DNA of 64,000 nt, taken from Humibacter albus DSM 18994. GTDB lineage: Bacteria; Actinomycetota; Actinomycetes; Actinomycetales; Microbacteriaceae. The notes beneath the pieces are model-generated. The model did not search any database and was not told where the DNA came from. It saw nothing but the letters and a program-made list of their open reading frames with translations. Made by a program: the position numbers and the translations under genes. Positions 3,278 through 49,284 of this stretch are shown piece after piece. How positions within the stretch are numbered: the stretch's first letter is position 1; the number at the start of each line of letters is the position of its first letter. The stretch lies in the NCBI RefSeq assembly GCF_000421825.1, contig NZ_ATXT01000016.1, positions 310,001 through 374,000 on the forward strand, in the 5' to 3' direction.

Positions 3278-3464
3278 GCGCGGCCCCCTGACCGCCCTGC
3301 AGAGGCGAGCATTGCTCGAATTCGGCGGCCTCCTGCTGAGGCTAGGCCCGACTCGGCTGTGCCGCTGGCCCCCGTACGCGGGGCCCGTGCTCGAACGAGC
3401 GAGTCCACGACCGGCAGCGCTCGGGCCGAGGGCGGGTGCAGGCCGGTGCACCAGAATGGTTCGG

Positions 3465-10590: not shown

Positions 10591-10661
10591 GCCGATGTAG
10601 TTCAATGGCAGAACTTCTGCTTCCCAAGCAGACAGCGCGGGTTCGATTCCCGTCATCGGCT
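10591..10661 (+). tRNA. tRNA-Gly(CCC)
   Basis: The cloverleaf can be folded by eye. The acceptor arms GCCGATG (10591-10597) and CATCGGC (10654-10660) pair fully, with discriminator U at 10661. The anticodon stem is TCTGC/GCAGA (10616-10620 with 10628-10632), with loop TTCCCAA giving anticodon CCC (10623-10625). The T-arm is GCGGG-TTCGATT-CCCGT. CCA is not encoded. It decodes GGG glycine codons. Confidence 0.95.
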
Positions 10662-17009: not shown

Positions 17010-17082
17010 GTCACTATTTCAGGACATATCAGGTCAGATCGATATATCTGTCGTCTGACCTGATATGTCCTGAAATCGTGAC
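17010..17082. repeat. 73-nt palindromic element, copy A (28-17-28)
   Basis: Left arm 17010-17037, loop 17038-17054, right arm 17055-17082. Apart from a single T/G position the two 28-nt arms are fully complementary. The left arm starts GTCACTATTTCAGG and the loop begins ATCGATATATC. It stands between the chelatase gene and the P-type ATPase gene. The same architecture with partly the same sequence recurs at 49001-49073. There is no U-tract, so it is not a classic terminator. The remainder of 16951-17252 holds the ATPase leader and nothing else recognisable. Confidence 0.85.
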
Positions 17083-48841: not shown

Positions 48842-49020
48842 TGAGCGGTGCTCTCAGGGGCGCTGCACAACGGTCTCACTGTTACTAACTCAGGCCACAG
48901 CGGGTCAGGCTGTCAGGGTCGCTGCACAACGGGTCTCATTGTTGCCAACTCAGGCCACAGCGGGTCGGGCTCTCCGGGTCGCTGCACAACGGGTCTCATT
49001 GTTACTAACTCAGGCCACAG
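48842..49020. repeat. 60-bp tandem repeat array
   Basis: Clear units begin at 48862 (59 bp), 48921 (60 bp) and 48981 (partial), each starting GCTGCACAACGGGTCTCATT and containing GTTACTAACTCAGGCCACAG. A more decayed unit precedes 48862. The last GTTACTAACTCAGGCC is also the arm of the palindromic element at 49001-49073, so array and element share a sequence origin. The open 20-residue-period frame across it is not considered a gene. Confidence 0.9.
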
Positions 49021-49073
49021 AGCGTCAGAACGCGGATATATCGATCTGACGCCGCTGAGCCTGAAATAGTGAC
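49001..49073. repeat. 73-nt palindromic element, copy B (28-17-28)
   Basis: Read on the minus strand: arm beginning GTCACTATTTCAGG, loop ATCGATATATCCGCGTT, and arm ending GTTAGTAAC. Arm, loop and total length equal those of copy A at 17010. The first 14 nt and a 16-nt block GTCAGATCGATATATC are identical to A with the same 9-nt gap. The stem is weaker: inner 7 bp and most of the outer 14 pair, with mismatches between. Confidence 0.85.
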
Positions 49074-49077
49074 GACT

Positions 49078-49217
49078 CGACCGGCGACGGCGCGACCGGC
49101 GACGGCGCGACCAGCGACGGCTCCACCGGCGGCGGACCGACCAGCGACCGGCGCGACCGGCGACGGACCGACCAGCGACCGGCTCGACCGGCGGCGGCGC
49201 GACCAGCGACGGCTCCA
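49078..49217. repeat. 15-bp tandem repeat
   Basis: About nine copies of a 15-16-bp unit (CGACCGGCGACGGCG, varying to CGACCAGCGACGGCT) begin five bases after copy B of the palindromic element. With the 60-bp array they make up most of the 48723-49284 gap; no gene is supported there. Confidence 0.8.
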
Positions 49218-49284
49218 CCGTGGTGCCAGCCGCTGCATGGCGGAATCCACGGCATGGCGGAAGCCGCCGTGCGCCCCGGAGGCG

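What the first reader, a model, noticed from the sequence alone, without database searches (positions are those of the whole stretch)
17010..17082. A 73-nt palindromic element with conserved loop but divergent stem, present twice 32 kb apart
Copies at 17010-17082 and 49001-49073 (opposite strand) both have 28-nt arms around a 17-nt loop. They share GTCACTATTTCAGG, a 9-nt variable gap, and GTCAGATCGATATATC at the arm-loop junction. Copy A pairs almost perfectly; copy B has a different arm middle yet keeps partial pairing at the outer and inner ends. Identical architecture with partly changed stem sequence suggests selection on shape, as for a REP-like element, a palindromic mini-transposon or a structured RNA. 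I know of no named family with this sequence.
Basis: seen in the sequence. Interest (0 to 1): 0.72.

Follow-up and report, generated by a model that had tools for sequence, protein, structure and literature searches.

The report
Extragenic palindrome family, transposon landing site
Dozens of 73-base hairpin-shaped DNA elements are scattered between the genes of this bacterium and some of its relatives, built to one plan, and a jumping gene has twice inserted itself exactly into the hairpin's loop.

Summary
The window copies belong to a dispersed family: at least 36 elements in this Humibacter genome, two of them split by an insertion sequence. Copies occur in three of four other Humibacter genomes and in some other Microbacteriaceae. 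None of the 38 own-genome hits overlaps a predicted gene by more than 25 nt; sites are enriched between convergent genes. The plan is a 73-nt hairpin: 29 pairs, a 15-nt loop, a CAGG/CCTG block kept in every copy aligned. Outer stems differ between subfamilies yet stay paired. No RAYT-type (Y1) transposase was found in 16 genomes tested; palindrome ends show no target-duplication signal. An IS481-family element and a deletion derivative sit in two palindromes, each with a 15-bp duplication identical to the loop. IS ends carry TCAGGACAT starting at base 10; TCAGG starts at palindrome column 10. Best reading: a REP-like palindrome family recognised at its dyad by an IS481-type transposase or a protein of like specificity. 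Recognition is inferred, not shown.

The parts
17010..17082 (+). Element copy A, complete 73-nt palindrome
   Evidence: 28 of 29 pairs; best R2 hit of the six genomes, 92.4 bits
17010..17017 (+). Copy A outer stem, left (columns 1-8); partner 17075-17082
   Evidence: in 31 own copies, own-copy pairing 188 of 248 against 171.9 in shuffles, 0 of 3000 as high
17018..17027 (+). Copy A conserved block TTCAGGACAT (columns 9-18); partner 17065-17074
   Evidence: columns 11-14 and 60-63 (CAGG, CCTG) invariant in the 34 rows of A2 and in 41 of 41 relative 73-mers; columns 9-14 read TTCAGG in 27 of 31 own and 33 of 41 relative 73-mers
17028..17038 (+). Copy A inner stem, left (columns 19-29), variable between copies; partner 17054-17064
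17039..17053 (+). Copy A 15-nt loop (columns 30-44), centred on the dyad; the same columns form the 15-bp target duplication of the two IS481-type insertions elsewhere in the genome
49001..49073 (-). Element copy B, complete 73-nt palindrome, 20 of 29 pairs
49030..49044 (-). Copy B 15-nt loop
48872..48991 (+). Two 60-nt tandem units (a third continues into copy B), each holding a half-palindrome arm GTTRCYAACTCAGGCCACAGCGGGTC
   Evidence: no second array in the genome, the only other match being 26 nt at the IS-split palindrome of C16

Best explanation
A family of REP-like extragenic palindromes. SHOWN: dispersed, lineage-specific copies of one plan (73 nt; 8-nt outer stem free in sequence but paired; invariant CAGG/CCTG, usually within TTCAGGAYAT/ATRTCCTGAA in relatives; variable inner stem; 15-nt loop), between genes with a bias to 3' ends; an IS481-family IS and its internal-deletion derivative sit exactly at the dyad of two copies with the loop as a 15-bp target duplication. 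INFERRED: a dimeric protein recognises the two inverted TCAGG blocks and the dyad. The likeliest candidate is an IS481-type transposase, whose own ends carry TCAGGACAT starting at base 10 from the tip, the column where TCAGG starts in the palindrome. The palindromes would thus be non-autonomous or landing-site elements that persist because they give insertions a harmless extragenic target, and the paired stem would be kept as DNA (cruciform or symmetric binding site) rather than as an RNA of one fixed strand.
For: At least 36 elements here. Distinct sites with R2, my count: 19 in G001, 13 in G003, 13 in G004, 11 in G219, 0 in G002. 19 of 299 family genomes (own included, 4 of them in the genus) and 11 of 85 genera have an R2 match at E<=1e-3, with 16 candidates scored per genome. 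0 of 38 own hits overlap a predicted gene by more than 25 nt. Gaps with an element: 29 convergent, 35 tandem, 9 divergent of 73; gaps without: 26, 111, 40 of 177; convergent enrichment p 4e-5; divergent depletion p 3e-5 against gaps >=60 nt but 0.08 against all gaps. Covariation on A2, 34 of 36 available sequences: 76.1% of cells paired vs 69.4 +/- 0.9; 81 double-change cells vs 44.2 +/- 5.1; four of five measures 0 of 500 shuffles, the fifth 3 of 500. Outer stem within genomes: G000 0, G001 0, G003 1, G004 1, G219 188 of 3000 shuffles as high. Two insertions, each with a duplication that is letter for letter the loop but differs between the loci, hence taken as independent. The transposase matches NCBIfam IS481 best (E 2.9e-59; 200.9 bits, below its 224-bit cutoff) and Pfam rve and rve_3 above cutoff. 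TCAGGACAT starts at base 10 of both IS ends. GT+TG 109 vs AC+CA 112 mismatches in 72 copies: no sign of strand-specific RNA pairing. No Y1 transposase in 16 of 16 genomes, 5 of 14 controls positive.
Against: No target-duplication signal at the palindromes' own ends, so their spread by a DDE transposase is not shown. The palindrome tips vary and are not TGT/ACA. Only two insertions are known; a search for such insertions in 398 genomes found none, but the pattern was badly chosen and misses even the two known ones. The other IS481 relatives found (one at C11 here, others in G002 and G003) showed no palindrome around them by eye, and R1 and R2 list no hit at the C11 place. The inner stem within this genome and within G004 does not clearly pair above shuffles (593 and 2575 of 3000), so 'shape' is constrained only in part. 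Shuffles ignore relatedness, and symmetric changes could also come from hairpin-templated repair without selection. The motif match was noticed after looking.
Confidence: 0.55

Rival explanations
1. Bidirectional transcription terminator or 3'-end RNA hairpin family: the hairpin forms in mRNA at gene ends and stops transcription or protects the transcript.
For: Convergent gaps enriched, divergent gaps depleted against gaps >=60 nt; three relatives' elements (L109, L114 in G001, L142 in G208) lie within 20 nt of both convergent gene ends; strong predicted RNA folding of the window copies.
Against: 9 of 73 gaps are divergent; distance to 95 3' ends is broad (median 71 nt, up to 835); no excess of G-U over A-C mismatches; no TTTT within 14 nt after the stem on either strand in 34 of 34 own and 42 of 42 relative copies; an invariant block with near-fixed spacing is not needed for a terminator.
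Confidence: 0.2
2. Dyad-symmetric binding site of a host chromosome-organising or repair protein, spread by selection and gene conversion; IS481 hits it by chance or because it is cruciform.
For: Near-fixed spacing of the CAGG and CCTG blocks (31 of 34 own copies and 41 of 42 relatives are exactly 73 nt); in four cases an element sits by the same gene in two Humibacter species; each genome has its own majority sequence.
Against: Copy number differs strongly between congeners (0 in G002, though that assembly is 87% complete; 19 in G001; at least 36 here). Elements at shared places are not clearly more alike than other inter-genome pairs (five pairs: 0.56, 0.67, 0.67, 0.53, 0.52 against means 0.59, 0.59, 0.59, 0.57, 0.55; the two at 0.67 are reached by 19 of 142 other pairs).
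Confidence: 0.15
3. Neutral debris: an old MITE family, now decaying, whose pairing reflects a symmetric birth and quasipalindrome correction by template switching.
For: Pairing ranges from 12 of 28 to 28 of 29 among 26 copies; copy A nearly perfect; inner arm not clearly covarying within the genome; 3 of 34 own copies have lost the exact length.
Against: CAGG/CCTG invariant in the 34 rows of A2 and 41 relatives despite drift elsewhere, though copies lacking it would be harder to find; outer-stem pairing kept across subfamilies with different sequence.
Confidence: 0.1

Closest known systems
REP / BIME elements of Enterobacteria and Pseudomonas (GTAG class) and REPINs
   Same: Dispersed extragenic imperfect palindromes in many copies, variable stems with a conserved motif, lineage-specific subfamilies, IS insertions inside them (Tobes and Pareja 2006, PMC1525189, passages read; REPIN details recalled).
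   Different: 73 nt instead of 20-40; GTAG at the ends in 0 of 34 own and 0 of 42 relative copies; no RAYT/Y1 transposase in 16 of 16 genomes; the conserved block lies within the stem.
CGTC-tagged REPs (PMC3733652, passages read)
   Same: Palindromic repeats said to lack a dedicated transposase; CGTC occurs near the left edge in 11 and near the right edge in 9 of 34 own copies.
   Different: CGTC is rare in the relatives (1 and 3 of 42); their stems are 8-9 bp with 4-5 nt loops, here 29 and 15.
IS1397 / ISKpn1 (IS3 family), IS621 (IS110 family): insertion sequences that target REPs
   Same: IS inserted into a repeated extragenic palindrome.
   Different: Here the IS is of the IS481 type; PMC1525189 (passages read) lists IS3, IS110, IS4, IS256 and IS5. 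The duplication is 15 bp and equals the loop.
MITEs, in particular IS481-derived ones
   Same: Short inverted-repeat element without gene; TCAGG at the same offset as in the IS ends; a real 349-bp IS481 deletion derivative is present in this genome.
   Different: No duplication signal at the palindrome ends; tips not TGT/ACA; outer 8 nt vary between subfamilies.
IS481 family insertion sequences
   Same: The inserted IS: 1424 bp, TGT...ACA ends, rve-type transposase; 15-bp duplications are within the 2-15 bp range reported for the family (PMC10045372, passages read).
   Different: Use of a palindrome dyad as target; not mentioned in the passages read.

Membership tests
REP (GTAG/CGTC, RAYT-linked) | Multiple extragenic imperfect palindromes | tested here: met
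   38 hits, 0 overlapping a predicted gene by more than 25 nt (2 overlap a gene end by about 11 nt)
REP (GTAG/CGTC, RAYT-linked) | Unit of about 20-40 nt tagged GTAG or CGTC at one end | tested here: not met
   73-nt unit; GTAG 0 of 34 own and 0 of 42 relatives; CGTC near the left edge 11 and right edge 9 of 34 own, 1 and 3 of 42 relatives, so not a family-wide tag
REP (GTAG/CGTC, RAYT-linked) | Associated Y1 transposase (RAYT, PF01797) | tested here: not met
   0 of 16 genomes, 5 of 14 controls positive. Per the PMC3733652 abstract (passage read), CGTC REPs also appear to lack one
MITE | Terminal inverted repeats | tested here: met
   29-nt arms
MITE | Target site duplication at the ends | tested here: not met
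   in 34 copies, k 3 to 10, the best-scoring offsets listed matched in at most 3 copies
MITE | Ends shared with an autonomous element in the genome | tested here: inconclusive
   TCAGGACAT at matching offset in the IS481-type ends, but the tips differ
IS481 family (the inserted IS) | IS481-type DDE transposase | tested here: met
   NF033577 E 2.9e-59, best of 5 families but 200.9 bits against a 224-bit cutoff; Pfam rve and rve_3 over cutoff
IS481 family (the inserted IS) | TGT...ACA terminal inverted repeats and target duplication | tested here: met
   52 of 60 terminal bases match; two 15-bp duplications
Known Rfam RNA family | Match to a curated covariance model at gathering score | tested here: not met
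   the only match in the window is one tRNA
Integron attC site | Conserved R'/R'' core sites (recalled) | not tested
   considered from memory only

The most novel reading that the evidence does not exclude
The palindromes are a host-wide set of docking sites that share their recognition motif with IS481-family transposon ends: an IS481 transposase reads two inverted TCAGGACAT-like half-sites, opens or bends the dyad, and inserts with cuts exactly at the two stem-loop borders, so that element and transposon are kept together as a targeted, gene-sparing pair independent of RAYTs, in Humibacter and partly in other Microbacteriaceae.
Probability: 0.3. Interest if true: 0.65.

Novelty: new variant of a known kind. 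Interest (0 to 1): 0.5.

Why it matters
REP-type palindromes are mostly explained through RAYT transposases. A family with a rigid hairpin plan and no Y1 transposase found, in an actinobacterial family for which my word searches of the held papers (listings only) showed no description, raises directly testable questions: what spreads it, and does a DDE transposase find its target by a motif shared with its own ends? The loop-exact 15-bp duplication gives a sharp prediction for an insertion assay, and such sites could serve as gene-sparing insertion points.

Tried and rejected
RAYT-driven REPs: rejected for lack of PF01797 in 16 of 16 genomes. L010 as a REPtron-like unit: the gene between the copies looks by eye like an alpha/beta hydrolase, not a transposase. 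Target duplications of the palindromes: no signal. Covariation of the inner arm within this genome: weak or absent (517 of 2000, 109 of 3000, 593 of 3000), against my first expectation; it does exceed shuffles in G001 (8 of 3000), G219 (9) and G003 (39), not in G004 (2575). RNAalifold on own copies alone (A1) predicted only 9 pairs, with a covariation term of -0.03. Recurrent neighbour gene as a partner: none evident among 263 flanking proteins compared all against all. Exact own-type pattern in GTDB genomes and viral contigs: 0 and 0 (the own genome may be left out there). A broader pattern gave 10 loci, 7 in Humibacter sp. RRB41 and 3 in Microbacterium sp. ASV49, 0 in viral contigs. IS-in-palindrome pattern over 398 genomes: 0, but the pattern required A after CAGG and so also misses the two known cases; not informative. 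The weak matches in other genera mostly share a CAGG...CCTG stem but mostly differ in length (54-97 nt); kept as possible distant kin only, and R2 scores hairpins in general. Papers: searches (listings); passages only were read of PMC1525189, PMC3733652, PMC10045372, PMC2516522. Rows dropped: A2 holds 34 of 36 available 73-mers (the second of two neighbouring C13 copies and one of two similar C16 copies were left out); pairing statistics use 31 of 34 uninterrupted own copies and 41 of 42 relatives (odd lengths left out). The gap statistics use my own gene caller and count the two IS-split elements as hits with the IS gene as a neighbour.

Full report
OBSERVATION. Copies A (17010-17082, +) and B (49001-49073, -) are present as described. 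Strict counting gives 29-nt arms and a 15-nt loop. Copy A pairs at 28 of 29 positions, copy B at 20 of 29. Both fold below all 200 shuffles on both strands. Rfam's only match in the window is a tRNA elsewhere.

GENOME-WIDE FAMILY. BLAST with copy A gave 37 matches in the genome, both strands counted. Covariance model R1, built from 26 copies, gave 38 distinct places: 34 uninterrupted elements and two elements split in halves, i.e. at least 36 elements. R1 scored 150 of 814 candidates, so the count is a lower bound. With a simple codon-score gene caller of my own, none of the 38 hits overlaps a gene by more than 25 nt; two overlap a gene end by about 11 nt.

WHO IT IS. G004 has contigs of the same lengths as Humibacter sp. 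RRB41 (501602, 164102, 576317, 1219923, 209761), and the window's genome is in the same genus (g1), hence Humibacter (inference from matching lengths).

RELATIVES. R1 at E<=1e-6 found matches in 2 of 40 genomes, the own one included. R2, built from 34 sequences of which five are from relatives, with the 29-pair structure given by me, found 19 of 299 family genomes and 11 of 85 genera at E<=1e-3, 16 candidates scored per genome; 15 of the 19 lie outside the genus and most of these are weak. With 150 candidates scored, distinct sites (my count) are 19 in G001, 13 in G003, 13 in G004, 11 in G219 (another genus) and 0 in G002 (110 contigs, 87% complete). Some of these sequences helped to build R2. 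Of 42 copies taken from relatives 41 are exactly 73 nt, and of 34 uninterrupted own copies 31 are. CAGG and CCTG (columns 11-14, 60-63) are invariant in 41 of 41 and in the 34 rows of A2. TTCAGGAYAT/ATRTCCTGAA is typical of relatives. The outer 8 nt differ by subfamily but pair: CGCCCGTT with AACGGGCG, CGCCACAA with TTGTGGCG, GTGCACAA with TTGTGCAC, GTCACTAT with ATAGTGAC. Matches in further genera mostly share a CAGG/CCTG stem but vary in length; they may be distant kin or generic hairpins.

IS SHAPE SELECTED? On A2, which mixes 29 own copies and 5 relatives, covariation exceeds shuffles (76.1% cells paired vs 69.4; 81 double-change cells vs 44.2; four of five measures 0 of 500, pairs with change on both sides 21 vs 16.0, 3 of 500) and all slid versions. 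The structure was chosen from these sequences, which flatters it against the slides, and the shuffles ignore relatedness. On own copies alone RNAalifold gave almost no covariation. Within genomes the outer stem pairs above shuffles in G000, G001, G003 and G004 (0, 0, 1, 1 of 3000), weakly in G219 (188 of 3000). The inner stem does so in G001 (8), G219 (9) and G003 (39 of 3000), but not in the own genome (593 of 3000) or G004 (2575 of 3000); over columns 15-24 the own genome reaches 109 of 3000. Selection is not the only way to get there: hairpin-templated correction makes palindromes symmetric too (general knowledge). G-T and A-C mismatches are about equal (109, 112 in 72 copies), so there is no sign that one defined strand acts as RNA.

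POSITION. Pooled over genomes, gaps with an element are 29 convergent, 35 tandem, 9 divergent; gaps without are 26, 111, 40. Convergent gaps are enriched (p 4e-5); divergent ones are depleted against gaps of at least 60 nt (p 3e-5), not clearly against all gaps (p 0.08). Three of 42 relative sites overlap a predicted gene. Four places seem shared by gene neighbourhood between two Humibacter species (L135/L111, L131/L115, L134/L117, L137/L126) and one less surely with G219 (L140/L143). The elements there are not clearly more alike than other pairs (identities 0.56, 0.67, 0.67, 0.53, 0.52 against means 0.59, 0.59, 0.59, 0.57, 0.55), so either the places are re-used or the sequences turn over quickly. 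In G001 an element lies between the 3' end of the P-type ATPase gene and its neighbour; here copy A is on the other side of that gene and the 3' junction is 29 nt with no element.

MOBILITY. No Y1 transposase was found in 16 of 16 genomes, while 5 of 14 controls are positive. The palindromes show no target-duplication signal. Two elements are split: at L045 by a 1424-bp IS, at L038 by a 349-bp deletion derivative with the same ends. In both, the 15-bp duplication is exactly columns 30-44, the loop, and it differs between the loci, so I take the events as independent. If insertion were random over 3.69 Mb, the chance of hitting the dyad of one of 36 elements is about 1e-5 per event (inference). 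The transposase is of the IS481 type (below the NCBIfam curated cutoff). IS481-like copies elsewhere (C11 here, G002, G003) showed no palindrome around them by eye, so targeting is not a habit of the whole IS group.

LINK BETWEEN IS AND PALINDROME. The IS ends have three TCAGGACAT copies at one end and two at the other, the outermost starting at base 10. In the palindrome TCAGG starts at column 10 and continues ACAT in copy A and most relatives, usually CCAT in other own copies. ISLxc2 of Leifsonia, also IS481, has CTCAGGGACG at a similar offset (PMC2516522, passage read). Shared specificity is therefore plausible but not proven, and the motif match was noticed after looking.

LITERATURE. REPs as IS targets are known for IS3, IS110, IS4, IS256 and IS5 families (PMC1525189, passages). 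IS481 makes 2-15 bp duplications (PMC10045372, passages). Searches returned no paper whose listing describes a palindromic repeat family of Microbacteriaceae or Humibacter; this covers only the held open library and those words.

VERDICT. A genuine REP-like palindrome family without a detected RAYT and with an IS481-type insertion pattern at its dyad; a new variant of a known kind.

Noticed in passing
window 48850-49060: A 60-nt tandem array (about three units) contains half-palindrome arms and runs into copy B; no second array in the genome, only a 26-nt match at the IS-split palindrome of C16.
   Followed up: partly
window 49058-49235: A GC-rich minisatellite with 15- and 31-nt spacing (CGGCGCGACCGGCGA-like) directly abuts copy B.
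   Followed up: no
L038:1678-2026: A 349-bp IS481-derived deletion element (MITE-like) with intact ends, inserted in a palindrome loop with a 15-bp duplication.
   Followed up: yes
L069:260-285: CTCCTGAATG, like the end of a palindrome arm, lies just outside the left end of the C11 IS481 relative, though no complete palindrome was seen.
   Followed up: no
L010:1936-2156 and 3380-3457: Two palindromes in direct tandem and a third in inverted orientation flank a single hydrolase-like gene, BIME-like.
   Followed up: partly
L038:3650-3690: A partial extra arm (CACTAACTCAGGCCATA) in tandem just before a complete palindrome, suggesting arm-level slippage.
   Followed up: no
L085-L097 (other genera): Hairpins mostly with a CAGG/CCTG stem but different lengths (54-97 nt); possibly a wider superfamily in Microbacteriaceae.
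   Followed up: no
window 10591-10661: tRNA gene, the only Rfam match of the window.
   Followed up: no
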